Assembly (NCBI GenBank): GCA_902778325.1
Contig: CACYWZ010000021.1
Span: 1 to 36,276 of the forward strand
Source of the DNA: an uncultured Spirochaetaceae bacterium
Lineage (GTDB): Bacteria > Spirochaetota > Spirochaetia > Treponematales > Treponemataceae
DNA: 36,276 bases
Direction: 5' to 3'
A program made the position numbers and the translations under genes. Positions within the stretch are counted from its first letter, which is position 1, and every line of letters starts with the position of its first letter. Below the pieces are notes generated by a model. The model did no database searches, was not told where the DNA came from, and saw only the letters and a program-made list of their open reading frames with translations. Below, piece after piece: positions 788 through 28,591 of the stretch.

Positions 788-1264
788 TTAGAACTGCTTT
801 ATCTCGGCAACAGAAAGCCCTGTTATCTGAGAAATCTGCTCTGGTGTGAAACCTAGTTTCAGCGCATTTTTCGCAGCTTGCGATAATCCTTGTGCAAGAC
901 CTTGCGATAATACTTGCAGTTTTTCAGACTTTTCGTTTGGACACATTCCACCTTTTTGGGTTTTTGAAGAAATTTCTCTTGGACAAGGAAAACCGCGTGC
1001 GGTTTTTACAGAAATTTCGTTTGGACGAGCAAAACCGCGTGCGGTTTTTGAAGAAATTTCATTTGGACAAAGAAAACCGCAAGAGGTTTTTGAAGAAATT
1101 TCACTTGGACGAGCAAAACCGCATGAGGTTTTTGCGGAAATTCTGTTTGGACAAAGAAAACCGCATGAGGTTTTTGAGGAAATTCCGTTTGGACGGAAAA
1201 AATGCAAAACAGACACGAAAAAGAGCCGCTTCCAAAAACGTTTAGAAGCGATTGAATTACACAT
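788..1264 (-). CDS. ORF ending in an Rpn-type C-terminal tail, nuclease domain replaced by a 42-bp repeat array
   Basis: A 158-residue ORF. The last 45 residues (LSQGLAQGLSQAAKNALKLG, then FTPEQISQITGLSVAEIKQF) are the helical tail typical of Rpn recombination-promoting nuclease/putative transposase proteins. The upstream part is a 14-residue repeat (variants of PNEISSKTSCGF) encoded by array A, and no PD-(D/E)XK nuclease domain is present. It may be a remnant. Alternatively, only an internal start is used: ATG at 946 with AAGG four bases upstream gives a 52-residue protein starting MCPNEKSEKL. That would resemble the short C-terminal antitoxins made from internal starts in rpn genes. The start at 1264 has no clear ribosome site. 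A real Rpn tail is likely; the repeat part as protein is doubtful. Confidence 0.45.
   Translation of the reverse strand: MCNSIASKRFWKRLFFVSVLHFFRPNGISSKTSCGFLCPNRISAKTSCGFARPSEISSKTSCGFLCPNEISSKTARGFARPNEISVKTARGFPCPREISSKTQKGGMCPNEKSEKLQVLSQGLAQGLSQAAKNALKLGFTPEQISQITGLSVAEIKQF
937..1204. repeat. Tandem array A: seven 42-bp units
   Basis: TTGGAC recurs at 937, 979, 1021, 1063, 1105, 1147 and 1189, exactly 42 bp apart. Internal units share an AAAACCGC/GCGGTTTT dyad that is perfect in two units and degrades to GAGGT on one side in the others. The spacer after TTGGAC alternates between an AAG type and a GAG type, giving an 84-bp higher-order period. The first and last units are diverged, as at the edges of an old array. 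Several reading frames stay open across it only because 42 is divisible by three. Confidence 0.95.
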
Positions 1265-1280
1265 TATCTTTCGTTAAAAT
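1252..1280 (+). promoter_or_regulatory. Promoter of the PNPOx-like gene
   Basis: TTGAAT (1252-1257), a 17-base spacer, then TAAAAT (1275-1280). The predicted start at about 1287 leaves a leader of about 12 bases that is almost only the ribosome site AGGAGG. The -35 box overlaps the 5' end of the opposing ORF. Confidence 0.55.
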
Positions 1281-1298
1281 TATTTACAGGAGGCTTTT

Positions 1299-2102
1299 AT
1301 GCTCGATAATTTTATTCCAAATAAATCCTATGCGATTGTTTCAGGCTACGATAGAAACGGAAATATCGTCGCTGTTTTGGGAGGAGTCATTTATCACAAG
1401 AACACAATCGAATTGTTCTTTCCGAAGTCGAACCCGTTTACCGTAAACCAAGCAGTAACCTTTCATTTGGACAATCGAACTGGAGTTGAGGAAATCGACC
1501 CAGAAATGCGAGTGTATCGAACATCTGTAAAAGCAAAAGTAATAAAGAGCGAAGGATTGAGCATCTTTGTGGAGCTTATAGAGTATGAATTGAAGTTCTC
1601 AAACACGATTGTAGACAGCTACAAAGCCTCTGATTATCAGTTTCCCACAGACACAAGAAGCGACATTGAACTAGAAGAAGCTGTTTTCTCTAAAGAAATC
1701 GTTTTTAATGACAAAGAAAAGGACAACAAACTCGGTGTTCTAATCACGAAGGCAATCGAGCAACCGCACACAACTGTTATGGCGTTCATATCGTCTATAG
1801 AAGATGATATTTATATTATCAGTCATTCAGGCTCCTTTAAGTCAAAGAACATAAGGAGAGATAAAAACTGTGTTTTTGCCATCGACCACCGAGCCACCTA
1901 TTTGTTCACAAAAGCAATCGATTGGAACTACACCTTAATCAAGGGTACTTTCAAAAAGGTTTCGAAAAACAACGAGATGTTCCCTCTGCTACAAGCAAAA
2001 TTCGTAGAGAAAAATCCGTGGGAGTTTAGTTTTTTCACTGACGATAAAGTGGAAATGTACCAAATAAAAGCAGAAGAAATACTTTGCCCAGAAAAATATT
2101 AG
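1299..2102 (+). CDS. PNPOx-like (FMN-binding split-barrel) protein with an extra N-terminal domain
   Basis: A 267-residue cytoplasmic protein with a perfect AGGAGG six bases before the ATG. Residues of about 145-255 resemble the pyridoxamine-phosphate-oxidase-like split barrel: TTVMAFISSIEDDIYIISHS, then KSKNIRRDKNCVFAID and FTKAIDWNYTLIKGTF. This is the pattern of small flavin-binding PNPOx-like proteins that act on unknown substrates. Residues 1-130 form a beta-rich domain I do not recognise. It is transcribed rightward, convergent with the ABC-F gene. The substrate cannot be deduced, and a heme- or F420-binding role typical of the wider fold is equally possible. Confidence 0.65.
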   Translation: MLDNFIPNKSYAIVSGYDRNGNIVAVLGGVIYHKNTIELFFPKSNPFTVNQAVTFHLDNRTGVEEIDPEMRVYRTSVKAKVIKSEGLSIFVELIEYELKFSNTIVDSYKASDYQFPTDTRSDIELEEAVFSKEIVFNDKEKDNKLGVLITKAIEQPHTTVMAFISSIEDDIYIISHSGSFKSKNIRRDKNCVFAIDHRATYLFTKAIDWNYTLIKGTFKKVSKNNEMFPLLQAKFVEKNPWEFSFFTDDKVEMYQIKAEEILCPEKY

Positions 2103-2171
2103 ACCTGCTCGAGAAACTTCTGTCATTATCGGGGCAATCCCAATAATAACAAATAATTTCAGAACAGGTCT
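2101..2171. repeat. Nested inverted-repeat element between convergent genes
   Basis: The outer arms AGACCTGCTC (2101-2110) and GAACAGGTCT (2162-2171) pair at nine of ten positions. Inside, ATTATCGGG pairs with CCCAATAAT around a short loop. The element begins within the stop codon of the PNPOx-like gene. It may be a two-way terminator, or a small mobile-element remnant; no poly-T tract follows directly. Confidence 0.5.
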
Positions 2172-2176
2172 ACAAC

Positions 2177-2233
2177 AAAAAAGCCTGTGCCTTACAAAAG
2201 AGGCTGTGCCTTACAAAAAAGCCTGTGGCTTAG
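2177..2233. repeat. Three 19-bp units at the 3' end of the ABC-F gene
   Basis: A unit of the form AAAAAGCCTGTGCCTTAC occurs three times, with cores at 2183, 2202 and 2221. The last copy runs into the ABC-F stop codon. On the minus strand the first unit met forms AGCC-ACA-GGCT followed by TTTTTT, which could act as a weak terminator, so the repeats may be duplicated terminators. Confidence 0.6.
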
Positions 2234-3870
2234 AACTTCACCTTGATACCAGTGCCTTCATAATACTTTGCGCGAAGCTCTTTCACCTGCTTGTCCGCAA
2301 GATAATCATCGAAGTTCATCATGCGGTCAATAACGCCGTTCGGAGTGAACTCGATAATGCGGTTCGCAATAGATGAAATGAACTCGTGGTCGTGGCTTGA
2401 GAACATCACAACACCAGGGAACTGCACAAGACCGTCGTTCAAGCTCGTGATTGACTCAAGGTCGAGGTGGTTCGTCGGGTCGTCCATGATGATGACGTTC
2501 GCGCCCGAAAGCATGAGCTTTGACAGCATACAGCGCACCTTTTCGCCTCCAGAGAGAACTTTGACCTTCTTCAAGCTCTCATCTCCACTGAAAAGCATTC
2601 GACCGAGGAAGCCGCGAACATAAGCGTCGTCCTGCTCCTTTGAATACTGCTTGAGCCATTCTGTGATGTTCAAATCGTTGTCAAAATAGCTCGTCGTGTC
2701 GCGCGGAAGATATGTGTGGCTCGTCGTCTGTCCCCAGTTATATTCGCCAGAATCCGCTTTAAGCTCGTCTGCAACAATGCTGAAGAATGCGCTGATTGCG
2801 TTATGCTCCATACCAACGAAAGCAACCTTTTCGCCCGGGTGGATTGTCAAATCGAGCTTCTTGAGCAAATGCACGCCGTCGCGGTCAGTGTAATCCAAGC
2901 CCTTTGCATCAAGAACGAAGTTACCGATGCTGCGGTCTGCCTTGAAGTTTACATAAGGGAACTTGCGGCTTGTAACAGGCATTTCCTCAAGCTCGAGCTT
3001 CTCCAAAACTTTCTTGCGGCTTGTTGCCTGACGGCTCTTTGCGGCATTAGAAGCAAATCGCTGAATGAATGACTTGAGGTCTGCCATCTTCTCTTCGCGC
3101 GCTTTTGCTTGGTCTTTTGCCTGTCTCTGCATAATCTGGCTCATCTGATACCAGAAATCGTAGTTTCCAGCGTACTGCGTGATTTTGCCGTAATCGATAT
3201 CGCAAACATAAGTACAAACAGTGTTCAAGAAGTGGCGGTCGTGGCTGACAACGATAACCGTGTTTTCAAACTCCATCAAGAACTCTTCAAGCCAAGTAAT
3301 CGCTTCAAGGTCAAGACCGTTCGTAGGCTCATCAAGAAGCAAAATATCAGGCTTTCCGAAAAGTGCCTGCGCCAAAAGAACGCGGACTTTCTGGCTTTCG
3401 TCAAGCTCTCTCATCATCTTGTCGTGGAACTCTTCTTCAAGACCAAGCCCCGAAAGCATCTGCTCAATATCGTTCTCGGCTTCATATCCGCCAAGCTCGC
3501 CGAACTCAGCTTCCATCTCGCTCGCCTTGATTCCGTCCTCTTCGCTGAAATCTGGCTTTTCATAAATCGCGTCTTTTGCCTTTTCAAGCTCGTAGAGTTT
3601 CGGGAAGCCCATCTTTACGGTTTCCATAACCGAGTAATCGTCGAAAGCAAAGTGGTTCTGCACCAAAGTCGCCATTCGCTCGCCCGTAGAAATCGAGATT
3701 TCACCAGAATCGTGCTCAATCTCGCCGTTCAAGACCTTGAGGAAAGTAGATTTTCCCGCACCGTTTGCGCCGATAATGCCGTAACAGTTGCCAGGCGTGA
3801 ACTTCAAATTAACATCTTTAAACAAAGGCTTTTCGCCAAACTTCAAACTAACATCGCTAACAGTAATCAT
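2230..3870 (-). CDS. ABC-F ATPase, YbiT-like, with a degenerate second nucleotide site
   Basis: A 546-residue soluble protein with two ABC domains and no membrane segments, the length of YbiT-type ABC-F proteins, which bind the ribosomal E site and regulate translation. Domain 1 has a good Walker A (GANGAGKST, residues 34-42) and Walker B (ILLLDEPTNGLD), but its signature is LDESQ instead of LSGGQ. The linker has the family sequence FASNAAKSRQATSRKK. Domain 2 keeps LSGGE but its Walker A has decayed to GMEHNAIS and its Walker B reads MDDPTNHLD, with Asp in place of the catalytic Glu. Only the composite site from Walker A 1 and signature 2 looks usable. The gene follows the DEAD-box helicase by 18 bases, with GGGGAG upstream, so the two are probably one operon linked to RNA or ribosome work. 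Confidence 0.92.
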   Translation of the reverse strand: MITVSDVSLKFGEKPLFKDVNLKFTPGNCYGIIGANGAGKSTFLKVLNGEIEHDSGEISISTGERMATLVQNHFAFDDYSVMETVKMGFPKLYELEKAKDAIYEKPDFSEEDGIKASEMEAEFGELGGYEAENDIEQMLSGLGLEEEFHDKMMRELDESQKVRVLLAQALFGKPDILLLDEPTNGLDLEAITWLEEFLMEFENTVIVVSHDRHFLNTVCTYVCDIDYGKITQYAGNYDFWYQMSQIMQRQAKDQAKAREEKMADLKSFIQRFASNAAKSRQATSRKKVLEKLELEEMPVTSRKFPYVNFKADRSIGNFVLDAKGLDYTDRDGVHLLKKLDLTIHPGEKVAFVGMEHNAISAFFSIVADELKADSGEYNWGQTTSHTYLPRDTTSYFDNDLNITEWLKQYSKEQDDAYVRGFLGRMLFSGDESLKKVKVLSGGEKVRCMLSKLMLSGANVIIMDDPTNHLDLESITSLNDGLVQFPGVVMFSSHDHEFISSIANRIIEFTPNGVIDRMMNFDDYLADKQVKELRAKYYEGTGIKVKF

Positions 3871-3888
3871 TCTTTTATTATGCTCCCC

Positions 3889-5667: not shown

Positions 5668-5761
5668 TCGATAACCCATATATATAAAAGTCAGATTGCA
5701 AAAGTTAGTAAAAAAGTAAGCAATATATTGATTTGCAGTATATCTCTTTTCAGATAAAGTG

Positions 5762-5767
5762 TATAGT
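5762..5767 (+). promoter_or_regulatory. Possible -10 box directly before the rlmK start
   Basis: TATAGT ends seven bases before the ATG at 5775 and no Shine-Dalgarno sequence is present, which would give a leaderless or nearly leaderless mRNA. A good -35 at the right distance is not seen; an alternative TTGATT (5728) plus GATAAA (5753), 19 bases apart, would give a leader of about ten bases. Confidence 0.35.
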
Positions 5768-5774
5768 GTAATCT

Positions 5775-6944: not shown

Positions 6945-6950
6945 CACTCT

Positions 6951-7008
6951 ATAAGTTAGTAGGCTTTTGCTTGCTAACTTATTAGTCTGATTATATTTTT
7001 CAATCAGA
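6951..7008. terminator. Two hairpins between convergent genes
   Basis: ATAAGTTAG (6951-6959) pairs with CTAACTTAT (6974-6982). A second stem, TCTGATT (6986-6992) with AATCAGA (7002-7008), has a T-rich loop. They sit between rlmK (rightward) and mazF (leftward) and probably end both transcripts. Confidence 0.55.
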
Positions 7009-7023
7009 TTACCACTCTATCCG

Positions 7024-7362
7024 CTATTCTTTCATAACATAATCAATCGCAGCTTCAATCTGCGTCAAAAACTTCTTTGGAAGCCTGGAAATTTTCTCTT
7101 CCAAACGGAATTTATCAACAACAATAGTCTGATGAACCAAAGCAACAGAATCTTTCGTCAACCCCGATTCTGCTTTGGGTATAAAAACATTGCCTAACAA
7201 GTCTGCATTTATAGTATTTGACGTGAGAGGAACAACCAGTTTTGTATTCAGTCCGTTCAAGTTCTCTTTATCCGCTTGAATTATGACAACAGGGCGACGA
7301 TAGCCTGGCTCGCTTCCGTACGGAACACCGAAATCAAGCATATAAACATCACCACGAGTCAT
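7024..7362 (-). CDS. mazF: MazF/PemK-type mRNA interferase toxin
   Basis: A 112-residue protein with the MazF fold markers: GDVYMLDFG, GSEPGYRRPVVIIQ, LVVPLTSNT and DSVALVHQTIVVD. MazF enzymes cut single-stranded RNA at short sequences. The conserved Arg of RRPVVI and the Thr-Ser of PLTSN, both near the active site, are present. The start overlaps the end of the upstream antitoxin gene by 14 bases, so translation is probably coupled. The length is normal and no key residue is missing. Confidence 0.93.
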   Translation of the reverse strand: MTRGDVYMLDFGVPYGSEPGYRRPVVIIQADKENLNGLNTKLVVPLTSNTINADLLGNVFIPKAESGLTKDSVALVHQTIVVDKFRLEEKISRLPKKFLTQIEAAIDYVMKE

Positions 7363-7540
7363 TTTTCACGCTCTCCCAGACTGTTGCAAGACTAGATTCT
7401 CGCATTTTCTGCAAACTCTGTGCTTCCGTCAGCTCGGCAGTTCTCTTATTTACAGCATTTGCAATAAATGTCAAAAGCTGAATCTGCTCTGCCAATGAAA
7501 AAGACAATACCTGATTTTCCACTTGAGCCATAGTCATCAT
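7349..7540 (-). CDS. Antitoxin partner of the MazF toxin
   Basis: A 63-residue protein (MMTMAQVENQVLSFSLAEQI) with GGAGG seven bases before the first ATG. The N-terminal part resembles the short helical antitoxins paired with MazF outside the classic AbrB-fold MazE group: an LSLAEQIQLL-type helix, then a charged tail ending SVKNDSW. No AbrB-type beta fold is recognisable, so it is assigned by its place upstream of, and overlapping, mazF. Confidence 0.75.
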   Translation of the reverse strand: MMTMAQVENQVLSFSLAEQIQLLTFIANAVNKRTAELTEAQSLQKMRESSLATVWESVKNDSW

Positions 7541-7560
7541 ACTCGCACCTCCGCTCTTTC

Positions 7561-7589
7561 ATTATACCACGCTCACAGCCTGCTTACAA
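7561..7589 (-). promoter_or_regulatory. Promoter of the mazEF-type operon
   Basis: On the minus strand TTGTAA is followed after 17 bases by a perfect TATAAT, 20 bases before the antitoxin start. Autoregulation by the toxin-antitoxin complex is usual for such operons but no operator was identified. Confidence 0.75.
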
Positions 7590-7616
7590 TTCAAAGACCT
7601 CTTTACAATGCCACGC

Positions 7617-7649
7617 AAAAAAAGCACGAGGACACACCCCCGTGCTTTT
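7617..7649 (-). terminator. Intrinsic terminator of the esterase gene
   Basis: AAAGCACG (7641-7648 on the minus strand) pairs with CGTGCTTT around a 12-base loop and is followed by a run of seven T on the minus strand. It begins about 12 bases after the esterase stop codon. Confidence 0.85.
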
Positions 7650-7661
7650 CTTTCGGCGAAG

Positions 7662-9017: not shown

Positions 9018-9035
9018 AAGAACCTCCCAGTTCAA

Positions 9036-9082
9036 AAATAAAAAAACCTGACTTTCCGCCCTTTGCAAGAAAATCAGGTTTT
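9036..9082 (-). terminator. Terminator-like hairpin in the esterase leader (attenuator)
   Basis: On the minus strand AAAACCTGA (9082-9074) pairs with TCAGGTTTT (9051-9043) and runs into TTTTTTTATTTTT. It ends only eight bases before the GGGAG ribosome site of the esterase gene and lies downstream of that gene's promoter. A CAGG at 9087-9084 can pair with CCTG of the left arm and would block the terminator. Confidence 0.75.
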
Positions 9083-9129
9083 GCCTGTCATAAAAAACAG
9101 TAACAATCCCAAAACTAATTGTTAAAAAA

Positions 9130-9159: not shown

Positions 9160-9183
9160 TTTTTTCTTTTGTTATATTTTGGT

Positions 9184-9338
9184 TGCTGAGCGAAGTCGAA
9201 GCACCGAAACGAGAGTGAATTTCCCTTTTCAAACATTTGTTTAAAGCCTTGCTGGAGCGAATTTTGCCTTTCTAACATTTGTTTAAAGCGTCGCTGGAGC
9301 GAATTTTGCCTTTTAAACATTTGTTTAAAGCGTCGCTG
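9184..9338. repeat. Tandem array B: three 42-bp units beside a REP-like motif
   Basis: Units start at 9213, 9255 and 9297, each exactly 42 bp, with ACATTTG at 9233, 9275 and 9317. A fourth ACATTTG at 9358 is 41 bp on and its surroundings are degenerate. Complete units hold a TCGCT-GG-AGCGA hairpin and an AAACA-TT-TGTTT dyad. The array adjoins TGAGCGAAGTCGAAGC (9187-9202), a motif seen as an intergenic repeat in many bacteria. The array lies between the esterase promoter and the DUF6261-like gene. A 93-residue minus-strand ORF across it is a by-product of the period. Confidence 0.9.
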
Positions 9339-9534
9339 GCTCGCAGTCTTAAAACGAACATTTGTTATTTTCAACACAATTGTTACAGCGATGAAACGAC
9401 AAAGAAAATTCTGTCGTCTGTATGATTTTTCAATCAATAATTTTACTTTTCGCCTTGCTTTTCGTATTTTTGAGGTATAGCCGATTAGACCTATTCTCTT
9501 TTTGACTAAATCCTAACAACAAAGGGGCATTTTT

Positions 9535-12620: not shown

Positions 12621-12626
12621 GCGTAA

Positions 12627-14376: not shown

Positions 14377-15510
14377 TCAGAACTCTCTGATTGCAAATAC
14401 ATTCATATAACCGTTCCAGTGTTTTTTTGAGCTTCTGAAAGTATCATCAGATTGAGTACCAATTGAAAATGCGTTTTCGGACTCTCCACTTACTTGGCTT
14501 GAAGTCCAATACTCTTTTTCAAAGCTAAAACTTCCAATTTTTGCCAATACAGTATTTATTGTCGTTTGAGCCTTTCGGAACGCATAACATTCAGCGACAG
14601 TTGGCATATACCAGCCTTTTTCAAACGCTGTTTTTTCGCAATAAGTTGTGCCGTACGCGTTTACCCATTCCCACGCAGGATAATTTCCCGCAGTATTCTC
14701 GTCGCTGACTGCTTCACAAATCTTTTCCCAGTTGGAAGAACCGTTACTTTCTCCATCAAATGACACATTTTCAGAAATTGATGACTCATTCCCCGATTTT
14801 CCAGAGCTATCTGTTGGAGTGCAGATAATGCTGGATATTTTGCTGTATCCCTCAGCAGAATCAGTAGTCCAAGCAAGTTTAGAGCCGCTTTCGTGAAGTC
14901 CTATGCCAAGCAATCTTTTTCCAAGTCTGTCGCCAGAACTTCCTGCATAGAAAATCACCGCTATTGCCGCTTCTTTTTGTTCATCGCTCAGTTCAAGAGA
15001 TTCGCTATATGCCGTTGCAGAACCATCGCTAAACACAATGTCACCCAAAGAATCAGGACGCTCTTTTTTGCCAATAGGGGGCTGCTCTTCGTAGCGCAAA
15101 AGCACAAGCGAAAGCGCGTTCTCGCCCTCGGCTATAGAGATTTCATCTGTTTCACCCTTATATAAAATCTGCTTTTCATCTCCCAAAACACTGTACGCTG
15201 TGCCCTCCGCCTTGACGACAGCGCCAACGGGAACGTCCTCGAAAACTACAATTTTTCCCCCACTAAGTGCAATTTGCCTGACGTTTTGATAATCGCCTTT
15301 TAGTTCAATGTCCAAAAACAAGCCGTCCCCGTCAGCATTTATTGCGCGAGAAGAGAAAGTCGCGGTCGTCTTGATTTTTTCCACAAGTTCGCCTGAGATT
15401 GCAAAAGAAAGAGAAGCTGTATCATCAGATTGATTATTAAATAGAAAAGAACAGGAGCAAAACAAGAAAGCGCAGAATATCAAAAAAGCAAAATAAATAT
15501 TTTTAATCAT
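14377..15510 (-). CDS. Surface or periplasmic lipoprotein with an Lcl-type C-terminal domain
   Basis: A 377-residue protein with a lipoprotein signal peptide: MIKNIYFAFLIFCAFLFCSC, lipid-modified Cys at about 18-20. AAGGAG precedes the ATG. The middle (residues 30-150) is a beta-rich domain of the kind many Treponema lipoproteins share, with GGKIVVFEDVPVGAVVKAEG. The C-terminal part (WEWVNAYGTTYCEKT, then GWYMPTVAECYAFRKA and EYWTSSQ) resembles the Lcl C-terminal/DUF1566 fold found in surface adhesins and ligand-binding lipoproteins. It is transcribed on its own, downstream of the JAMM-DinG gene. The ligand is unknown. Confidence 0.8.
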   Translation of the reverse strand: MIKNIYFAFLIFCAFLFCSCSFLFNNQSDDTASLSFAISGELVEKIKTTATFSSRAINADGDGLFLDIELKGDYQNVRQIALSGGKIVVFEDVPVGAVVKAEGTAYSVLGDEKQILYKGETDEISIAEGENALSLVLLRYEEQPPIGKKERPDSLGDIVFSDGSATAYSESLELSDEQKEAAIAVIFYAGSSGDRLGKRLLGIGLHESGSKLAWTTDSAEGYSKISSIICTPTDSSGKSGNESSISENVSFDGESNGSSNWEKICEAVSDENTAGNYPAWEWVNAYGTTYCEKTAFEKGWYMPTVAECYAFRKAQTTINTVLAKIGSFSFEKEYWTSSQVSGESENAFSIGTQSDDTFRSSKKHWNGYMNVFAIREF

Positions 15511-18121: not shown

Positions 18122-18449
18122 CCCAATTGCTCGTCGGAGCGTTCGGGGAGGCTTTTGGGATTTGGAAATTGCCCGTCGGAGCGTTCGGACAGCCTTTTGG
18201 GATTTGGAAAATGCCCGTCGGGACGTTCGGTGAGCCTTTTGGGATTTTGAAATTGCTTGTCGGAACGTTCGGACAGCCTTTTGGGATTTGGAAATTGCTT
18301 GTCGGAACGTTCGGACAGCCTTTTGGGATTTGGAAATTGCTCGTCGGAACGTTCGGTGAGCATTTTTCCGTTTGGAAAATGGCGTCGGGAGTTCCTTTTT
18401 GGCTTTTTCCGTTTGGAAAAGACTTGTCGGAGCGCTCGGTGAGCATTTT
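18122..18449. repeat. Tandem array C: eight 42-bp units between spoIIE-type and dinG genes
   Basis: GTCGG recurs at 18133, 18175, 18217, 18259, 18301, 18343, 18384 and 18426: all steps are 42 bp except one of 41. Several central units (18259, 18301, 18343) carry the palindrome GAACGTTC within an imperfect 16-bp dyad; other units have GACGTTC or GAGCGTTC. The last unit ends at the stop codon of the phosphatase gene, so the array fills the 376-bp gap upstream of dinG. The seventh unit is the most diverged. ORFs of 130-140 codons on both strands result from the period. Confidence 0.95.
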
Positions 18450-21400
18450 TCAAGAACGCTTCATGCACAAAAGCGTGAGGTCGTCGAGCTGCTCGTCTTC
18501 GCAAAGGTAGGTGTATTCGATGTACACGGGATTTTCAAACGCCTCGTTCTTTCTTGAGCAGTAATAATCGTAGCGGTTGAAATGCTTTTGAAGAAAGTCG
18601 TCGATTTTTTTGTCGCAGCGGACGACATCGCTTTCGCTGACGTCGGAAGGCTTGTAGAAGCGGAAGACTTTTTCGACGGAGGCAAGGGCGATGATGATTT
18701 CGTCAACGCTTCCTGTGCAAGTTGAAAAGTCGAACTCAAGGCGCTCGTCGCCAAGCGGGTTGTGCTTTTTTTCGAGGACGTAAACGGAATTGGAAAGCAC
18801 GGCTTCGATGATGTCGTGGATTCGCTCGTTTTCCATTTGCTCGTGGTCGACGCTCTCAGTGTGCTCTCGCGGTGTTCCTTCGTCCATAACTTCGTCGACG
18901 CTCATCTCGCTGAAATCGGCTTCGCGGTATTTTCGTGTCGACTCTTCGATTCCGTCAGTGTAAAGGAAAAGAACGTCGTTCTTCTTGAGCTTGATTTTTT
19001 CTACTTTGAACTCCAGCTCCTGCATCAAAACGTCGCGCACAAAAGATGCGGACATATTGCCGGCGGCGGGGTTCGGGAACATTTGGCGAATGACCATTTT
19101 TTTTGCGTCTCCGTCGTAAATATGCACGATATTGTCTCCCGCGTTGCAAGTGTAAACGTCTCCGCTTTCCATATTGACCAAGCACAAGCAGATTGCCGCA
19201 AATTTTCCCTGAAGTCCCAAGGTCGCAAGGAATTCGTTGATTTGCAAGACTGCTTCTCCGATTCTTGTGCCGTTTTTTGCGAAAGACCAGTTTTCAAAAT
19301 ACTTTCGGAAGAACGTGGCGACGACGGTTACGATAAGAGCTGCAGGAACTCCGTGTCCCGAAGCGTCGCATTTTATGACCGCAAACCATTTTTTGTCCAA
19401 GACTTTGTAATCAAAATAATCTCCCGAAACGAGTGACGCGCCTTCGTAATAACCGAAAAAGTGCAGTTTCTCGCCTTTGTATTCCGAGACGGACATTTTG
19501 CCTTTTCCAAGCGGAAGGAGAGGCAAAAACGCCTGCTGAACGACTTTTCCGTCCATCATCAGCTGCTCTTCTTCTGCGGCTTTTACTAGCCCGTGCGTCA
19601 TTTCGTTTATTTTCTCGCCGAGCGATGCGATTTCATCGTTAGTCTTTACGCTGATGTCTTTTCCAGCAAGTTTCATTTTGTCTTTTGTCGAAGAAATCAT
19701 CGCGACGTGCTGCTCCAACTTTTTCACAGGGTTTACGATGACGGAAGCGACGATGAGAGCGCCCAAGCCTCCGATTATGACGGCGACGAGTGTGATTGAG
19801 AGCGCTGTCAGGATGACTGTGCGGCGCGCTGAGGAGACGGATTTTATGAGGTTTGTCGTGTCAACAGTGATGTAGATTATGCCGCGGATATAATTTTGCT
19901 CCGCGCCTTGTCGGTACAAAACGGGCTTGTAGAAAATGTAGCGGTTCTGGCTCGCGTCGATTGCCTCATCGTCGTAAGGCGGATAAGAGCCTGTCGTGTT
20001 TCCAGAAATATCGTTCAGGAGTTTCGTGAGTCTTGAGGAAAGCTGCGTTGTTATCGTGGAAAGCTCATCGAGCCGCTTTTCGCTCTCTTCATCATCTTTC
20101 AGCGCAAGTTCCGCGCCTTCTGCGTTCAATTCGGCAATGCTTTCGGCGATTGCGCCCGCTCTTTCTGTGACGATTGAATTTAGTTCGACAAACTCAAGCG
20201 AAATCTTTTCCATTGTTTCATCGCTGAATCTAGAAACGCCATATTGCAGTTCAGAGTCGATTTTGTCTGAAATATCTTCGTCGTTCGTTGCCCAAACATA
20301 ATCAAGGTTCGTGTTTCCGCCTCCTGAAGGAATGCCGGAAATCGTTGCGCAAATCGCTTCGGGGAGAGCCGATGTTTGAGCGGGAAGATTTGAAAGCTCA
20401 AGGATATTCTCAAGAGGAAGATACGCTTTTACGCCAGAGGCAAGGCTTTCAAGAAGAACATTGACCCGCTCTTCAAGGCCAGAGGCAAGGGTTCGCTCTT
20501 GGGATTTTATCATTATGACGCCAAGCGGAAGGGCAACAAGAGAAACGACCATAACGACGAGGATTGCCGTAAAGAGAACGAGTTTCACTCGCAAACTGAA
20601 CTTTTTGTGAATGTCTCTGCTACGCTTTTTTTGAACCATATTTCTGCCCTCTTCTAGTGCAATTATATCAGAATTGACCGCAATCATTTCAATAACGGTC
20701 TGGTGAACGCCCCGAAGCGCAAAGGCTGAGGCGAAGAACGCAAGAACCATTATCATCGTCAAAAGCAAAATCGGCATATCAAGCGCGATTTTCCCAGACG
20801 GCTCATAGTTTTTCCAAATCGGTTTGTAATCGTATTCGTTTGCAAACTTCACGGTTCCGTTTATTTCGACTTTGAAAACATTTCCCGTGAAATAAACGCC
20901 GCGCTCCGTGTGGAAAAGTCCGACTTTGTATTCGCCTGAATCCAAGTCGCGCACTTTTATTCCGGAGATGCGATTCGTGCTGTTGACTTCATAATCGCCA
21001 TCGCCAAGATGCAGCACTTTGTCATAAGGCGCTTTTCCGTCGCGGTCAAGATAGATTTCGCTTATCGTTCCGTGATATGTAAAATCATTTCCAAGAATCG
21101 ACATCAAAAGCTCGTTTGTCTCGCTCATTTCTGTGTCGACTGCCGTCACGGAAGTTTCGGCGCTGTATTTGTTGAGCGCGACGAACACATTTGAAGCCGC
21201 TCCGATGTTTCCGACTTGGTCAATGGCGGCAACGGAGAATATATACAATCCGTTTCTGAGATTTGAATAACTTTGCTTTTGCTTTTTCCCCAGCAAAGTG
21301 CGCGGAGGTCGATGATTTTTTAGCTTTTGCGCGTGTTTTTTGACTAGCGCAGAAAGGGCGCTTTCGTCTTTTGGCTCACTTGCAATGTAATCAAGGCTCC

Positions 21401-23072: not shown

Positions 23073-26004
23073 TTACCCTCTTTTGCAATTCCAAAATCTT
23101 CGCTGAATTGCGGTTTGAATCTTTTTTTAGCAACTGTTCAACAAGAGCCTTCGCCATAATGACATTGTTTTTCTGCAAGGCTTGAACAGCTTTCTGGTAT
23201 TTTGCCTCATCTTCGCCTGAAAGCACAAGAACTGCATTTCCGCCAACACGAGTCTGAACGCTGTCAATCAATTTTGCAGTTTCAGCACTATCTGCATTAA
23301 GGCTAGAGGCTTCATTCAACAAACTAAGAGCGCTTTTTAGTTTTTCAGCATCAGAGCCTGCGCTGTCAATCAACTTCCTTGCTCTTTCAGTCATTGCGCT
23401 CGCCCTTGCTTTTTCCTCTCGGCTGACAGGCTTTTGTCTTATTCCGATTTCGATTTCAACATTGAAAATCAAATCTTTCAATCCCGGATACGACGGGTTT
23501 ATCTCATACAAATCTTGCAAATCCGCATACGCTTGCTGTCGCATTTCCTTTTGCTTTATTTGGACTTTCGCAGTATCAATGCGACTTGCAAAAAGTTTCT
23601 CAAACTCCGCAGGGTCTGAAATCTGGGCAATCCGAAGCGTCAAAACACTAGCCTCTCGGTTGAGCGGATAAACAAGTTGTAGCTCATGAAGTTTTTGAAG
23701 CGCCTTTTCAAAGTATTGCAAAGCCTTATCGCGCTTGTTCTTCTTGAGATTTTTCTGTCCTTCAGCAAAATGCTTTTTCGCAATGTTCAAAATCTGGGAC
23801 ATTTCAGGATAAAGAGGCGCAGAAACACGAAGTTCTCGTCCGTTTTTCAACTCAAGAGCATTGTTCACCAACGAAAGCATACTGTGAATTTCAGGGTGTT
23901 CTTCGATGTTTGTAATCGCCCAACGGTCCCGAGCGCGAATCAAAAGACTTTCCGCACTCTCAAACTCGCCATTGTAATATTCGCGACGTGCCTTAGTGAT
24001 AAGCTCTCGCACCTCACGAACGATAAACACATTTTCCGCCCTTGCAATCTCAAGCGAAAGAGCGCAAAGAATATCGTCGCTTCGCTTTCTTAGCGCAGGG
24101 TCTTCTTGATATGAAAGCGATTCATTAAACTTTGCCCTCGCCCTTGCTATGCTGTTTCGGGCGCTTTCAAAATCGTTTTTGGAAAAAGATGCCGAAGCCT
24201 GCTGATAACGGCGCTCAGCTTCATCTTTTGCCTTTTCGCTCAAGACAACATTGTTTTTCGCCGTGCCAAGATTTTCTGACGCCTTGAAAAGAAGACTTGA
24301 AAGATAATCGATATTAGCGCTTATCGTATTCTTGTATTCAAGGACATTTTCTTCCGCTCCATTTTCCAAAACGCCAAGTTCAGAGCGCAAAACACCAATA
24401 TCAGCGCTAATTCTTTTTTGAGCCTCCTCAAATTTCGGAACAGACTCACGAGAGTAATGCAAATCATCTTCTGTAGCGCCAAGAAGCGAAATCGCACCTT
24501 CGACTCTTTCGCCATCATCTTTGGCAATGTCATTGCTCGCAACAACAAAATAGTTTCCAAGTTTGTGCCACAACTTCACCGTTGACTGAGCATAACGCTC
24601 ACCAACAGCCTTCATCAAAGAATCGTGATAAGGAATGGCATCGTTCCATTCAAGAGCGCAATTTTCAACTTTCAAATCCTCAAGATACGGCGCATCATCA
24701 GAAAACCTGTCGCGATAATTCTTGTAGACATCAAGAGAGTCAATCATCTTTGAAACAGCGTCTCTCTTATTTTCCCTTTCGTTCTTAGCCGCGTTCGAAG
24801 TATCAGAAAGACGCTCAATAGCAAGGTCTTCGTCCTCAAAAGCACGCTTGGCAGACGAAAGACCTTCACACCTTGACGCCCATTTTTCTGCCGCCAAAAG
24901 AGAGCGCGAATATTTTTCATTGTCGTCAAAGAATGTTCCGCCAGAACCCTTTTTCATTTTTTTGTTCAAATCGTTTGTGCTAACAGAAAGGCGGGAAAAC
25001 AATCTGACATTTTCGCATTGAGATTTTATCGCTTCAAAACTCTCATTCTCGCTTTTGCACATTTCATCGCTGTTCTTGAGAGTGGCAAGATACGCCTCGC
25101 TGTCCATCAACGAAACAAGCGCTTTCCATTGCGTTTCAATAACACGAACAATTCCGCTTTCAGCCACACCCTCGCTTCCGAGCGCAAGCCTTGAGACAAA
25201 AGCGATATACGCCGAGTCAGTCAAATCAGGAAAATCTTTAACAAACGTCGAATAGCAGTTTTTCATCTCATCAGCGCAGCTCAAAATGTCATTGTGGATA
25301 ACAGCAGCGCGTGAAAAAGCGCTATCCACAGCCTTGAAAGCCTTTTCGCTCTCTGAATACTTTCCTGACTTGAGGGCAGCAATATATCGCTCATAAGCGC
25401 TTTTCAAATCAACTTGAACAAGCGAAAAAAGAGTGCAATCGTCCTCAACTTTTTTCAGCAATGCCGAAAGAGTTTCGCTAATATCACCGTTTTCGTCGTT
25501 GGCAAAAAACTCATTTCGGTAAATGTCAAAGCCTTTCTCAAACACATTTGCCGCGCTGTCATATTTCCCGTCATCCATAAAAGCGCGAGATTCACGCTGC
25601 ATTCTTGCATACTGAGAGCGAAAATAAGCAAATTGAGCCGCCTTTTTCGCCTCAGCGACAAACTCTTTTTCAGCCTTTCCGGGATTTTTTTCTGTTTCCT
25701 CAAGGTCTTTTATCATATCAAGTTTTTTCTTGTCGTTTTCAGGCTCGTCCAACAGAACTTCGATAAAATCGTCCGCCTTCCTAGAATATTGCTTTCGGGC
25801 AGAGAAAATTTCCTGAACCCTTTTTTCCGCCTCGTCAAACTTTTTTGGATTTTCACGCATATACTTCGTGATAAGAGAGAGCGCTAGATTATATTCGCGC
25901 ATTTCGATAAGAGCATCGATTTCTTTCAGCGCATCGTCTGCGAAAACAGGACAAAAAAAGAGAGATGAGATGACAATCGAAAAAAATATTTTTTTGAATA
26001 TCAT
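23059..26004 (-). CDS. Large periplasmic helical-repeat (TPR-like) protein
   Basis: A 981-residue protein with a signal peptide (MIFKKIFFSIVISSLFFCPVFA, split after about residue 22). GAGGAG precedes this start, which I chose over 26046. The mature protein is almost all helical. It has TPR-like repeats near the N-terminus (EMREYNLALSLITKYMRENP), at 145-180, in the 600-700 region (ASFSKNDFESARNSIARARA; YYNGEFESAESLLIRARDRW) and near 770-800 (KNKRDKALQYFEKALQKL). The middle is coiled-coil-like. It is co-transcribed with the phosphatase gene and probably scaffolds its periplasmic sensor or envelope assembly. The specific partner is unknown. Confidence 0.85.
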   Translation of the reverse strand: MIFKKIFFSIVISSLFFCPVFADDALKEIDALIEMREYNLALSLITKYMRENPKKFDEAEKRVQEIFSARKQYSRKADDFIEVLLDEPENDKKKLDMIKDLEETEKNPGKAEKEFVAEAKKAAQFAYFRSQYARMQRESRAFMDDGKYDSAANVFEKGFDIYRNEFFANDENGDISETLSALLKKVEDDCTLFSLVQVDLKSAYERYIAALKSGKYSESEKAFKAVDSAFSRAAVIHNDILSCADEMKNCYSTFVKDFPDLTDSAYIAFVSRLALGSEGVAESGIVRVIETQWKALVSLMDSEAYLATLKNSDEMCKSENESFEAIKSQCENVRLFSRLSVSTNDLNKKMKKGSGGTFFDDNEKYSRSLLAAEKWASRCEGLSSAKRAFEDEDLAIERLSDTSNAAKNERENKRDAVSKMIDSLDVYKNYRDRFSDDAPYLEDLKVENCALEWNDAIPYHDSLMKAVGERYAQSTVKLWHKLGNYFVVASNDIAKDDGERVEGAISLLGATEDDLHYSRESVPKFEEAQKRISADIGVLRSELGVLENGAEENVLEYKNTISANIDYLSSLLFKASENLGTAKNNVVLSEKAKDEAERRYQQASASFSKNDFESARNSIARARAKFNESLSYQEDPALRKRSDDILCALSLEIARAENVFIVREVRELITKARREYYNGEFESAESLLIRARDRWAITNIEEHPEIHSMLSLVNNALELKNGRELRVSAPLYPEMSQILNIAKKHFAEGQKNLKKNKRDKALQYFEKALQKLHELQLVYPLNREASVLTLRIAQISDPAEFEKLFASRIDTAKVQIKQKEMRQQAYADLQDLYEINPSYPGLKDLIFNVEIEIGIRQKPVSREEKARASAMTERARKLIDSAGSDAEKLKSALSLLNEASSLNADSAETAKLIDSVQTRVGGNAVLVLSGEDEAKYQKAVQALQKNNVIMAKALVEQLLKKDSNRNSAKILELQKRVNALL

Positions 26005-26108
26005 TTCACTCTCCTCAAAAACACTGCTATTAAAGATTTTCGACAATAAAACGCGCCTTTTGCACTTTCAAAACTCCCGAAAAACAGCGGTTTTGCGCTT
26101 TTGGCACA

Positions 26109-26138
26109 ATGACAAAAAAAGATAAATCAGATTATAAT
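26109..26138 (+). promoter_or_regulatory. Promoter at the FadL-like gene start, probably leaderless
   Basis: ATGACA (26109-26114), an 18-base spacer, then TATAAT (26133-26138). The ATG at 26147 is eight bases past the -10, about where transcription should begin, and no ribosome site is present. Confidence 0.6.
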
Positions 26139-26146
26139 GAAAATCA

Positions 26147-27439
26147 ATGATGAAGACGACTGCAAGAATTATAGCATTATTTTTCTTTCTCGTGCAAAGC
26201 GCTCTCATTTTTGCGCTGAACATCACACAAGCGCCCACAAGCGTCTCGGACGTGTTCGACACGTTCGCACAAGACGAAAACGCAGGCTCTTCAACATTTC
26301 TTTCGCTCAATATCCCGACAGGAGCAAGGGCAGAAAGCCTCGGAGGCGCATACACAGGGCTTTCAGATGACATCAGTTTTTTCGATTACAATCCAGCAGG
26401 CTCAGCTCTTCTAAGCGAAACAGAAGCCGCCGTTTTTCATAACTCCTGGATTTCAGACAGCGCCATCGAAACAATAGCCGCCACAACAAGATACGGCGAC
26501 TTTGGAATGGCGGCTGCGGCAAAATGCTTCTACGTTCCTTTCACGCAATACGATTATTACGGCGAAAAGCAAACTGACGGCTATTACAGCGAAACAACCG
26601 CCATTTTTAATATGTCATACAACTTTTTTCACGGCTATTATTTCAAAGGCATTGCGCTCGGAATGAACATAAAAGGCGCATGGAGAAGCGTTCCTGATTA
26701 CGCTGACAGCGAAACAAGTGAAATCAAAAAAGGCATTTCGCAGTCAGCCGCCGCAGTTATGGCGGACTTTGGCGCATTGACGCGCTTTAACTTCTTGAAG
26801 TTTTACTCATCACGAGAGCCGAATTTCAGCATCGGACTTTGCCTGAAAAACGCAGGCGTGGCGTTCACAGGATTTTCAAAACAAATCGAGCGCGACGACC
26901 CAATCGCAACACAGGCAAGCATCGGCTTTTCATACAAAATGCTGGAAGCGTTCACGCTCAGCGCAGATTTTTCACAGCCCATAAATCTCTTTTCGCCCTC
27001 CGAAAGCGAAAAATTCTCAGCGGGCGCGGGAATGATTTTTCAAATCACAAACAAAACAGCCATTCTCGCAGGCTTTCTCCTAAAAGGAGGAAATCCGCGC
27101 ATGAGCCTTGGCGGAGAAGCAGTCTACAGAGGCGTCCAGTTCAACATAAACTACACGCTCGACCTTACCTCATCGCTAAACCCCGTGAACCACATCTCGC
27201 TTTCAGCAAAAATCCGCCTAGGCGACCGTGGAAGAGCGAAGAAAGCCGCAACCGTGGACGAAAAATACATCGAAGGACTGCAAAAATACAGCGAGGGCGA
27301 TTATACAGAGGCAATCCGATTGTGGAAAGAAGCGCTCGAAATCGACTCAGGCTTTGACCCCGCCAAAAAAGGCATCACAATCGCCCAAAAGCAGCAGCAG
27401 CTCATCGAAAAGATAAAAGAAATGCAGTCGCTCGACTGA
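26147..27439 (+). CDS. FadL-like/UPF0164 outer-membrane protein with a C-terminal TPR
   Basis: A 430-residue protein with a signal peptide (1-24, MMKTTARIIALFFFLVQSAL then IFA). It has the start typical of spirochete UPF0164/FadL-like and PorV-type barrels: IPTGARAESLGGAYTGLSDD, ISFFDYNPAGSALL. Alternating beta-strand segments follow to about residue 365 (FSIGLCLKNAGVAFTGF; NPVNHISLSAKIRLGD). The last 60 residues are a TPR (KYIEGLQKYSEGDYTEAIRL). Related T. pallidum proteins are proposed long-chain fatty-acid transporters. The gene is divergent from the TPR-like/phosphatase operon, which is likely part of one envelope system. Confidence 0.88.
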   Translation: MMKTTARIIALFFFLVQSALIFALNITQAPTSVSDVFDTFAQDENAGSSTFLSLNIPTGARAESLGGAYTGLSDDISFFDYNPAGSALLSETEAAVFHNSWISDSAIETIAATTRYGDFGMAAAAKCFYVPFTQYDYYGEKQTDGYYSETTAIFNMSYNFFHGYYFKGIALGMNIKGAWRSVPDYADSETSEIKKGISQSAAAVMADFGALTRFNFLKFYSSREPNFSIGLCLKNAGVAFTGFSKQIERDDPIATQASIGFSYKMLEAFTLSADFSQPINLFSPSESEKFSAGAGMIFQITNKTAILAGFLLKGGNPRMSLGGEAVYRGVQFNINYTLDLTSSLNPVNHISLSAKIRLGDRGRAKKAATVDEKYIEGLQKYSEGDYTEAIRLWKEALEIDSGFDPAKKGITIAQKQQQLIEKIKEMQSLD

Positions 27440-27446
27440 TTTTTTA
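27425..27446 (+). terminator. Intrinsic terminator overlapping the end of the FadL-like gene
   Basis: CAGTC (27425-27429) and GACTG (27434-27438) form a five-pair stem with a GCTC loop, then ATTTTTT. The stop codon lies in the stem's right end. The opposing gene ends only 18 bases further on. Confidence 0.65.
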
Positions 27447-27457
27447 GACCGTTTCGC

Positions 27458-28228
27458 CTAAGAGCAGAATTTTGAAAGATAATTATAGACCGCTCGCACT
27501 TGAGATTCGCCTTTAACGTATTTTTGAAGAATGCGCAAGTTCTCGCTTGAAAAAGTGAACGTGATTTTTATCTTTGCCTCGCTGTTTTTTTCGCGAAGCA
27601 TATCGCAAAACGCAATAAGTTCCTCTGTCGTCGGGCTTCCAAGCCCAAAGCCGTTCCACAAATCAATGCTGTCGCCTCCAGAGCTGACGATGAACTGAGG
27701 AGTTGCAGAGCCGCCTTTGTAATCAGTTATCTTGAGATTGAACGAAAGACTTTCGATTTCGCTCCAGCGTATAACGTCGCTATGAAGACTGAAAAACTTT
27801 TTGTGGATAATCCCCTCATCGCGCACCCTGATGTTATAAAAAAACGTGAACGGAAAGACAAGAAGCGCAATCACTTCGACGATTATGCAAAAAGTAACGT
27901 CGCGCTTGTACGAGCCAAGACTGTAGCGCCCTCCCGAATAGTTTTCTTTTGAGTTCATTTTCTTGAAATAATCGCCCATCCCGAAAAGAGCCGAGAAAAG
28001 CCATTCAAGAGCGACATACGAAACAAAAATCCAGATGAAAAAGCCGCAAAGTGCAAAAATCGAAGGACCAACGCCAGCAAAAAACAACTCGCCTTCTTTT
28101 ATTTTGAACAAAAAGCGCATAAGAGGCGCATAACATTGGTGCAAAAATATCATTGAATACACCATCTGAGCGATGTAGAGCGCCAAAAACAAAAAGAAAA
28201 GCGCTGTTTGTGTGTGCTTTTTAGACAT
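27458..28228 (-). CDS. Three-helix membrane protein with a PH-like cytoplasmic domain
   Basis: About 256 residues from MSKKHTQTALFFLFLALYIA. I chose the ATG at 28228 because GGAG lies upstream and the first membrane helix then starts near residue 9. ATGs at 28255 and 28297 are alternatives. Helices are expected at about 9-29, 50-76 and 110-132. After them comes a soluble beta-rich domain (YNIRVRDEGIIHKKFFSLHSDV, split here for length, then RWSEIESLSFN) that resembles the bacterial PH-like domain seen in YdbT-type and other membrane proteins. The function is unknown. Array D and REP-like hairpins lie upstream. Confidence 0.65.
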   Translation of the reverse strand: MSKKHTQTALFFLFLALYIAQMVYSMIFLHQCYAPLMRFLFKIKEGELFFAGVGPSIFALCGFFIWIFVSYVALEWLFSALFGMGDYFKKMNSKENYSGGRYSLGSYKRDVTFCIIVEVIALLVFPFTFFYNIRVRDEGIIHKKFFSLHSDVIRWSEIESLSFNLKITDYKGGSATPQFIVSSGGDSIDLWNGFGLGSPTTEELIAFCDMLREKNSEAKIKITFTFSSENLRILQKYVKGESQVRAVYNYLSKFCS

Positions 28229-28297
28229 TTTTCTATTCTTCTCCTTTCTTTCCATCACAAAGTATACAAAAAATATCGCGTACATTGCAAGAAGCAT

Positions 28298-28591
28298 TCA
28301 AAAGCAATGCCTCATCACAAGCATAATGAGCATAATCAAATGCTTTTGCTTTATAATCAATTGCTTCTGTTCCATAATCATTTGCTTTTGCTCAATAATC
28401 ACTTGCTTTTACTTTATAATCACATGCTTTTGCTTCATAATCAATTGCTTCTGTTCCATAATCATTTGCTTTTGCTCAATAATCAAATGCTTTTGCTCCA
28501 TAATCATTTGCTTTTGCTTCATAATCACTTGCTTTTGTTCCATAATCAATTGCTTTTGCTTTTCATCGCGGGAATAAATCTTGCAGACGTC
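28298..28591 (-). pseudogene. Heptad-repeat coding remnant (minus strand of array D)
   Basis: In one minus-strand frame between stops at 28592 and 28298, ten or more seven-codon units read (M/I)(E/K)QK(Q/H)(L/V/M)I. Hydrophobic positions stay hydrophobic (codons NTG and ATN) and charged positions stay charged, as expected of a coiled coil under selection. One unit has a nonsense change, CAA to TAA (28409-28411), splitting the frame. No ribosome site is seen. It looks like a degraded coiled-coil gene, or a peptide starting at an internal ATG. Confidence 0.45.
28332..28562. repeat. Tandem array D: eleven 21-bp units
   Basis: ATAATCA recurs at 28332, 28353, 28374, 28395, 28416, 28437, 28458, 28479, 28500, 28521 and 28542, always 21 bp apart. 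Units 2-3 and 6-7 are identical 42-bp blocks 84 bp apart, a sign of block duplication. The two bases after ATAATCA vary (AA, AT, TT, CT, CA) while TGCTT is mostly fixed. The 586-bp gap between genes at 28229-28814 holds this array, a terminator and REP-like hairpins. Confidence 0.95.

What the first reader, a model, noticed from the sequence alone, without database searches (positions are those of the whole stretch)
937..28562. Four sequence-unrelated tandem arrays share a 42/21-bp period
Arrays A (937-1204), B (9213-9338), C (18122-18449) and D (28332-28562) differ in sequence, yet units are spaced 42, 42, 42 and 21 bp. Nearly every spacing I measured is exact; the only exceptions are one 41-bp step in C and one 41-bp step at the edge of B. 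42 and 21 bp are 4 and 2 turns of B-DNA and also 14 and 7 codons. Period is therefore conserved while sequence is not. This suggests a common generating mechanism, such as block duplication guided by DNA geometry, or selection for protein sites on one face of the helix. Units of A, B and C also carry short dyads. Three arrays are in gaps between genes and the fourth is in a remnant-like ORF.
Basis: partly seen in the sequence, partly recalled or inferred. Interest (0 to 1): 0.78.

Follow-up and report, generated by a model that had tools for sequence, protein, structure and literature searches.

The report
Genome-wide helically phased palindrome arrays
This gut Treponema chromosome seems to carry hundreds of short repeat arrays between genes whose letters differ from place to place but whose repeat length (21 or 41-42 letters) and built-in palindromes stay the same, as if the shape of the DNA rather than its sequence were what is kept.

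Summary
All four arrays are real. In 480 kb of the same genome not chosen by array hits, 55 arrays have periods 20-23, 40-43 or 81-85 bp and 3 have another period; about 385 genome-wide by extrapolation. Fifty-three congeners gave 9 such arrays in 1.63 Mb. The commonest long step is 41 bp (128 of 252; 42: 107), so codons are not the cause; steps fit 2 or 4 helical turns. Ninety-seven collected arrays form 35 sequence groups; 89 lie between genes. Dyads are three to four times commoner than in column-shuffled controls and are replaced by other dyads in phase. A, B and C have relatives dispersed over the genome. Mixed orientation and mismatch type speak against RNA hairpins; no Y1 transposase or reverse transcriptase match. 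Best reading: MITE-like dispersed elements built of helically phased dyad modules, acting or persisting at the DNA level. Closest known: BrickBuilt in anatomy, F-plasmid sopC in geometry. New variant of a known kind; maker and function are inferred, not shown.

The parts
959..1195 (.). Array A, family 1, 42-bp units x5.6; each unit has a dyad of the type AAAACCGC-NN-GCGGTTTT (first copy 989-1006) and a GAAATTTC-like dyad
   Evidence: 17 further matches at 11 other places of the genome; diverged period-41 relatives in G020 and G099
9213..9339 (.). Array B, family 11, 42-bp units x3, dyad AAACATTTGTTT (first copy 9231-9242)
9213..9430 (.). Longer dispersed element that contains array B; its right part (about 9340-9430) is a tail without clear tandem units, shared with other copies
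   Evidence: alignment A1; 13 other places, 7 of them starting at query base 40-44 and 13 of 13 ending at 246-268
18125..18451 (.). Array C, family 0, 42-bp units; dyad TCGGAACGTTCGGA (e.g. 18260-18273) and a second dyad that differs between units and copies; degenerate to the right
   Evidence: relatives at 11 other places of the genome
28331..28560 (.). Array D, family 15, 21-bp units x11, 84-bp higher order; no variation at one position of three in either member of this family

Best explanation
A, B, C and D are members of a large class of small dispersed intergenic elements in this Treponema lineage. An element is a head-to-tail string of modules with one dyad (short inverted repeat) per about 21 bp, or one strong and often one weaker dyad per 41-42 bp, so that dyads recur on one face of the helix every 2 or 4 turns. 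Elements of some families spread through the genome as units of roughly 220-280 bp, MITE-like, probably by an enzyme supplied in trans. Modules are exchanged between elements in phase. Geometry and dyad symmetry are kept while the letters drift, with both arms changing together. I think it most likely that they act at the DNA level: multi-site docking or supercoil-responsive arrays read by shape and spacing (a dimeric or filament-forming protein, or cruciform extrusion), not by one sequence. Shown: the genome-wide class, the period, the dyads, the intergenic place, dispersal and in-phase swaps. Inferred: mobility by a transposase, selection on phase, protein docking.
For: Excess: 55 phased and 3 other arrays in 480 kb of own genome, 9 and 18 in 1.63 Mb of congeners. 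Thirty-five sequence groups among 97 arrays sharing one metric. Dyads 2.30 per 100 bp against 0.58-0.76 in column-shuffled arrays, with 50 second-dyad spacings at 19.5-21 bp. Over 24 family consensus units the inner arms match 6.83 of 9 against 5.79 +/- 0.15, the outer half 0.364 against 0.256 +/- 0.025 (maximum 0.326 in 100 shuffles): a weaker dyad half a period away. Both-arm changes 127 against 70.9 +/- 6.1 (maximum 91 of 200 shuffles) in 88 arrays. Dyads swapped in phase inside arrays at L069:12700, L044:15361, L034:14524, L042:7685. Dispersal: family 12 has 11 of 28 non-self matches beginning at exactly query base 40, at the letters TTTTTCATTG; family 11 has 13 other places. Mixed elements of the two families at L263 (unread letters in between) and L261. 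Inward T-runs at 191 array edges: TTTTT 45.5% against 27.3% of background, TTTTTC 18.8% against 8.6%, on gene 5' sides as well as 3' sides. Eighty-nine of 97 intergenic, in all gene contexts; orientation to genes mixed, and no excess of G.T over A.C in transcript orientation, 147 and 163. Family A in G020 and G099 has period 41 and AAAACGC..GCGTTTT where G000 has AAAACCGC..GCGGTTTT.
Against: No transposase was tied to the elements. Terminal inverted repeats amount only to T-runs, and target duplications were not tested. In families 0 and 1 ends are not sharp. The shuffle test does not remove relatedness among units; in variable dyad columns only 1166 of 2394 cells pair (shuffled 1043 +/- 11), and in an earlier cruder count broken pairs outnumber both-arm changes, 339 to 137. 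Hairpin-templated mutation could make both-arm changes without selection. Neighbouring units differ by 374 indel events to 1985 substitutions, so strong constraint on spacing is not proven; part of this may be alignment noise at fixed cuts. No empty-site comparison was possible: the genes beside C are not adjacent in the congeners searched. Family D shows a codon-like pattern. Dyad, step and covariation counts include 37 arrays from stretches partly chosen by hits.
Confidence: 0.5

Rival explanations
1. Purely mutational: a lineage-specific replication or repair habit makes and homogenises arrays. Hairpins stall replication, slippage duplicates about 41 bp, and template switching on quasi-palindromes copies one arm into the other (mechanisms recalled). 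Nothing is selected; the arrays collect where there are no genes or promoters.
For: Arrays sit nearer gene ends than gene starts (median 59 and 106.5 bp), as tolerated junk would. Both-arm changes are what template switching gives. Scarcity in congeners fits a lineage habit. Indel to substitution ratio 0.19 between neighbouring units.
Against: It does not by itself set one length for 35 sequence groups or leave periods of 24-35 and 49-81 bp empty in the unbiased samples. Sharp family ends and dispersal need a copying step beyond slippage. SbcD, the hairpin nuclease, is present, so its loss is not the cause.
Confidence: 0.27
2. Ordinary MITEs that happen to hold a minisatellite, like BrickBuilt of Porphyromonas gingivalis; the common period is inherited from one ancestral element whose letters have since diverged beyond recognition.
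For: Shared flanks with sharp ends in families 11 and 12, mixed elements of the two, intergenic place, inward T-runs at edges. BrickBuilt has a leader, 23-nt repeats and a tail, and is always intergenic (abstract and passages of PMC4596501).
Against: Common descent does not explain why 21-bp and 41-42-bp versions, and periods 41 and 42 within one family (A in G020 and G000), all keep dyads in helical phase. No shared terminal repeat beyond T-runs was found. BrickBuilt is one family; here there are about 35 groups.
Confidence: 0.15
3. RNA-level elements: transcribed strings of hairpins acting as terminators, mRNA stabilisers, sponges or small RNAs.
For: One hairpin per unit could form in RNA as well.
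Against: Orientation to neighbouring genes is mixed and G.T mismatches do not exceed A.C. Arrays also lie between divergent genes (16 of 97). Edges tend to read T-run, array, A-run, the reverse of a two-way terminator. No Rfam match at gathering score in the window.
Confidence: 0.06
4. Coding minisatellites: 14- and 7-residue protein repeats.
For: The 42-bp arrays are open in several frames. In family D one position of three never varies in either member: D 12, 0, 11 and L066 14, 0, 8.
Against: 41 bp is the commonest long step and is not a multiple of three. Variation in A, B and C is spread over all three positions. No Pfam match above cut-off for the five array ORFs tested. The L066 relative has stops in the frame that matches the open one of D.
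Confidence: 0.02

Closest known systems
BrickBuilt, a minisatellite inside a MITE of Porphyromonas gingivalis (PMC4596501; abstract, passages and section 8 seen)
   Same: Short tandem repeats of about two helical turns (23 nt), always intergenic, leader and tail flanks, predicted stem loops, no match found by its authors outside the species apart from terminal regions and some translated hits
   Different: One sequence family with 19 copies in strain ATCC 33277; here about 35 groups and an extrapolated 385 arrays sharing a metric but not letters; shared flanks seen in only a few families here; IS-like terminal repeats there, only T-runs here
F-plasmid centromere parS_F (sopC): twelve 43-bp tandem repeats with ten 16-bp inverted repeats bound by ParB_F (passage of PMC6238139)
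   Same: Tandem repeats of about four helical turns with a dyad in the unit
   Different: One site, one dyad sequence and one known binding protein; here hundreds of places and many dyad sequences; no partner known
REP/BIME elements with RAYT transposases (PMC3733652 seen in search listings only; the rest recalled)
   Same: Intergenic palindromic repeats in many copies, sometimes clustered
   Different: REPs share a sequence tag and are linked to a Y1 transposase; no Y1_Tnp match in this genome and no common sequence among groups
MIRU/VNTR-type bacterial minisatellites (recalled)
   Same: Intergenic tandem arrays of some 40-60 bp units
   Different: One or few sequence families, no shared dyad architecture that I know of

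Membership tests
MITE | terminal inverted repeats | tested here: inconclusive
   Inward T-run enrichment at edges and a sharp TTTTTC end in family 12, but no longer shared repeat
MITE | target-site duplication | not tested
   Right ends vary between copies, so no paired ends were compared
MITE | short, intergenic, many copies, no transposase gene inside | tested here: met
   Arrays 81-433 bp, 89 of 97 intergenic, families at a dozen or so places
MITE | mobilised by a resident transposase with matching ends | not tested
   No DDE transposase search was made; Y1_Tnp had no match
BrickBuilt | 23-nt repeats framed by leader and tail | tested here: inconclusive
   Shared non-tandem flanks in families 11 and 12 and some in family 8; repeat length differs; letters were not compared with P. 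gingivalis
REP/BIME with RAYT | Y1 (REP-associated) transposase in the genome | tested here: not met
   PF01797: no match in G000, assembly 94% complete; control rang in 5 of 14 genomes
Reverse-transcriptase-made repeats (retron, DGR, telomerase-like) | reverse transcriptase gene | tested here: not met
   PF00078: no match in G000, assembly 94% complete; control rang in 3 of 14 genomes
CRISPR array | near-identical repeats separated by unique spacers | tested here: not met
   The whole unit repeats; units differ throughout
ParB/SopB-type centromere | one dyad sequence bound by a dedicated centromere protein | tested here: not met
   Dyads differ between and within families; a binding protein was not tested
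Structured RNA | strand-specific pairing with G-U tolerance | tested here: not met
   G.T 147 and A.C 163 in transcript orientation, codirectional contexts
Protein-coding minisatellite | unit length a multiple of three | tested here: not met
   128 of 252 long steps are 41 bp; family D stays open

The most novel reading that the evidence does not exclude
A chromosome-wide set of roughly 385 sequence-blind docking arrays: an architectural protein (or torsion itself) reads dyads spaced at 2 and 4 helical turns, selection acts on geometry alone, and the letters are free to drift with paired changes. That would be a genomic code in DNA shape and phase, not sequence, carried by dispersing elements in one Treponema lineage and rarer in its congeners.
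Probability: 0.22. Interest if true: 0.88.

Novelty: new variant of a known kind. Interest (0 to 1): 0.66.

Why it matters
Minisatellites and MITEs are normally families defined by sequence. Here about 35 sequence groups in one genome share a repeat length and a dyad layout instead. If phase is selected, it offers a natural, many-times replicated experiment on what reads DNA geometry in bacteria; if it is mutational, it exposes a duplication process with a built-in ruler of about 41 bp. Either answer can be tested with long-read strains of one species and ordinary DNA-protein assays.

Tried and rejected
Codon explanation: rejected for most arrays because 41 bp is the commonest long step; kept open for D. 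RAYT/REP: no Y1_Tnp match. Reverse transcription: no RVT_1 match. Loss of the hairpin nuclease SbcD: it is present in G000; of 12 genomes 4 have no match, two with a few arrays or one array-like palindrome array (G103, G011) and two without any in the sample (G015, G092); no link. RNA hairpins: no strand or G.U bias; no Rfam family at gathering score and no tRNA in the window. Terminators: T-runs point inward and are as frequent at gene 5' sides. A single sequence motif across families: only short words such as TTTGC exceed column shuffles (16 of 35 groups against 3.0), and I did not correct for the genome's own word bias. Phage or plasmid origin: C alone was searched, no match. Orthologous empty sites: genes beside C are not adjacent in the congeners searched, and the few syntenic stretches near rho hold none of the array gaps. 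The genome-contig scan with Rho gave mostly distant phyla and was of little use beyond Treponema being among the best hits. Literature: no paper on such arrays in the listings, which cover only the held open library; searches listed nothing at all, so the absence is weak evidence.

Doubts about my own counts: gene calls come from a crude longest-ORF caller. The list of 97 arrays includes 37 from 13 stretches partly chosen because BLAST hits lay there; this tilts the step counts towards 42; densities use only the 480 kb not so chosen. One search was not weighted by family. Two overlapping neighbours (L043:10198 with 10428; L046:8009 with 8090) were counted apart. Arrays of other periods, such as the 69-bp coding arrays of L039, were dropped before the 97. 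Groups are single-linkage BLAST groups, so some may be split or joined wrongly. Alignment A4 holds 28 of the 38 units and was used for no count.
Full report
What was checked. The four arrays exist at the stated places: A 959-1195, B 9213-9339, C 18125-18451 with 42-bp units and D 28331-28560 with 21-bp units. The window is the whole of contig C21 of a 3.35-Mb draft genome of 173 contigs, 94% complete, in a large genus; the best named hit of its Rho protein is a Treponema from a goat abomasum (74% amino-acid identity). In 146 other genomes of the genus the best long match to rho has 78% DNA identity (shorter pieces reach 80%), so no close strain was at hand.

Genome-wide test. In 480 kb not chosen by array hits, 55 arrays of at least 80 bp have periods 20-23, 40-43 or 81-85 bp and 3 have any other period of 15 bp or more; that is 11.5 per 100 kb, or about 385 in the genome by extrapolation. 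The same settings on congeners (53 genomes with readable letters, 1.63 Mb) gave 9 phased and 18 other arrays, and 120 kb of a genome from another family gave none. Five of the 9 are in one congener, G103, and at least four of those carry dyads by eye. Of the other four, those of G147 (L190) and G055 (L234) may be coding repeats by eye, and those of G011 (L172) and G093 (L245) have 22-bp periods with palindromes by eye. In 80 loci of named, mostly distant genomes (1.3 Mb) 2 of 13 arrays had such a period. Two later 12-kb stretches, of G020 and G099, held no array of 80 bp or more.

Period. Over the 97 collected arrays the unit steps are 39:1, 40:12, 41:128, 42:107, 43:4 and 20:2, 21:92, 22:3, 23:6; the means 41.40 and 21.13 are 4 x 10.35 and 2 x 10.56. 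Several arrays alternate 41 and 42, giving an 83-bp order. In the unbiased samples no array had a period of 24-35 or 49-81 bp (single arrays had 36 and 48). Since 41 is the commonest long step, the codon reading fails for most arrays. Family D is an exception that I cannot explain: in D and in its relative L066:12513-12719 one position of every three never varies (0 of 23 and 0 of 22 differences).

Sequence groups and anatomy. BLAST joins the 97 arrays into 35 groups. A, B, C and D are in four of them (families 1, 11, 0 and 15). Dyads with arms of 5 bp or more occur at 2.30 per 100 bp in the 80 long-period arrays, against 0.58-0.76 in five column-shuffled sets. In 24 family consensus units the best axis has 6.83 of 9 inner pairs against 5.79 +/- 0.15 in 100 shuffles, and the outer half is also raised (0.364 against 0.256 +/- 0.025): a weaker second dyad half a period away. 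A half-period axis follows from full symmetry in a periodic sequence, so only the raised outer matches count as evidence; second dyads also occur at other spacings.

The letters change, the dyad stays. Inside arrays one dyad gives way to another in the same place: CGGAATTTTACCG-like to GATTATTTTAATC at L069:12700, TTTTCCGTTTGGAAAA-like to TTGGGATTTCCCAA-like at L044:15361, CTCACA..TGTGAG to CTCGCTA..TAGCGGG at L034:14524. Between members of family 4, TTAAGTGCACTTAA and TGGGAGCACTCCCA occupy the same frame of flanking letters. Over 88 arrays, both-arm changes number 127 against 70.9 +/- 6.1 in 200 shuffles (maximum 91); in the same variable columns 1166 of 2394 cells pair against 1043 +/- 11. 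This control does not remove relatedness, and in a cruder count broken pairs outnumber both-arm changes, 339 to 137. Family A gives a cross-species case: units share GTCCAAACGGAATTTC, but the dyad is AAAACCGC..GCGGTTTT with period 42 here and AAAACGC..GCGTTTT with period 41 in G020 (4.9 copies) and G099 (2.4 copies). Seven of 143 congeners have a match to A, most of them short. For family 12 only the short dispersed repeat at its right edge was found elsewhere (3 of 143). For C, 6 of 38 relatives had weak matches, none inside the array except 24-25 bp at its right edge in G017.

Dispersal. Families spread as more than single units. Family 12 (L038:9739 onward) has 11 of 28 non-self matches that start at exactly the same base, at the letters TTTTTCATTG, with different right parts; the rest start inside, 11 bases earlier (one), or match only the short repeat at the right edge or inner pieces. 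Two of the copies aligned share flanking letters because another dispersed repeat abuts. Family 11, to which B belongs, is at 13 other places: 7 start at query base 40-44 (window about 9209-9213) and all 13 end at 246-268 (window about 9415-9437), so the element at B is longer than the visible array and has a tail. L263 carries the left end of family 12 and the units and right end of family 11, with unread letters in between; L261 carries an inverted family 11 end before family 12 units. Families 0 and 1 show no sharp ends. Array edges carry inward T-runs more often than other intergenic DNA (191 edges: TTTTT 45.5% against 27.3%; TTTTTC 18.8% against 8.6%; A-runs 31.9% against 27.3%), also next to gene starts, so they are not simply gene terminators.

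Place and level of action. Eighty-nine of 97 arrays lie between called genes; contexts are convergent 22, divergent 16, codirectional 50, and 9 at stretch ends. They stay further from gene starts than from gene ends (medians 106.5 and 59 bp). Orientation relative to genes is mixed within families, and mismatches inside dyads are as often A.C as G.T in transcript orientation (163 and 147). This speaks for DNA and against RNA. The genome has no match to Y1 transposase or reverse transcriptase, and it has SbcD.

Verdict. Shown: a genome-wide class of intergenic, dyad-bearing tandem arrays with about 35 sequence groups and one metric of 2 or 4 helical turns, some of them dispersed as elements with sharp ends. 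Inferred: movement by an unidentified transposase and selection on phase at the DNA level. The main rival is a mutational habit of this lineage; the indel to substitution ratio between neighbouring units (0.19) does not exclude it. The closest published thing I found is BrickBuilt, a MITE with a 23-nt minisatellite (PMC4596501); the closest in geometry is the F centromere with twelve 43-bp repeats and 16-bp inverted repeats (PMC6238139). As far as seen, neither has many sequence families sharing one metric.

Noticed in passing
window 28331-28560 and L066:12513-12719: In this 21-bp family one position of each triplet never varies in either array (0 of 23 and 0 of 22 differences), a codon-like pattern without a clean reading frame in L066.
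   Followed up: partly
window 9181-9213 and about 28704-28772; also L049:2354-2436 and 2796-2876: Other dispersed short repeats (TGAGCGAAGTCGAA type and the MLKRVQHD-type palindrome) abut or flank several arrays, on both sides of one (L049); a repeat of the first kind also matches G043, G062 and G083.
   Followed up: no
L195:19626-19943 and L193:11766-11936 (congener G103): A dyad TCGGGAG..CTCCCGA alternates with a version that lacks it every 41-42 bp, and a 46-bp unit has GTACATT..AATGTAC changed to GTACGTT..AACGTAC on both arms.
   Followed up: partly
L037:5217-5399 and 7415-7597; L061:13453-13642 and 15082-15212: Pairs of arrays 1.6-2.2 kb apart are 97% and 92% alike over 331 and 441 bp, flanks included: recent local duplications.
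   Followed up: no
L039:7029-11591: Long 69-bp repeats, coding leucine-rich type by recall of the motif, unrelated to the phased arrays.
   Followed up: no
window 1-625 and 7024-7540: Two toxin-antitoxin-like gene pairs: a PIN-domain protein (PF01850) with a small partner, and a MazF-like protein (recalled, not searched) with a small partner.
   Followed up: no
starts of contigs C2, C7, C11 and C12 of G000 (L035:193, L054:109, L060:92, L062:11): Several contigs begin within about 200 bp of an array, so arrays may break the assembly and longer ones may be missing from it.
   Followed up: no
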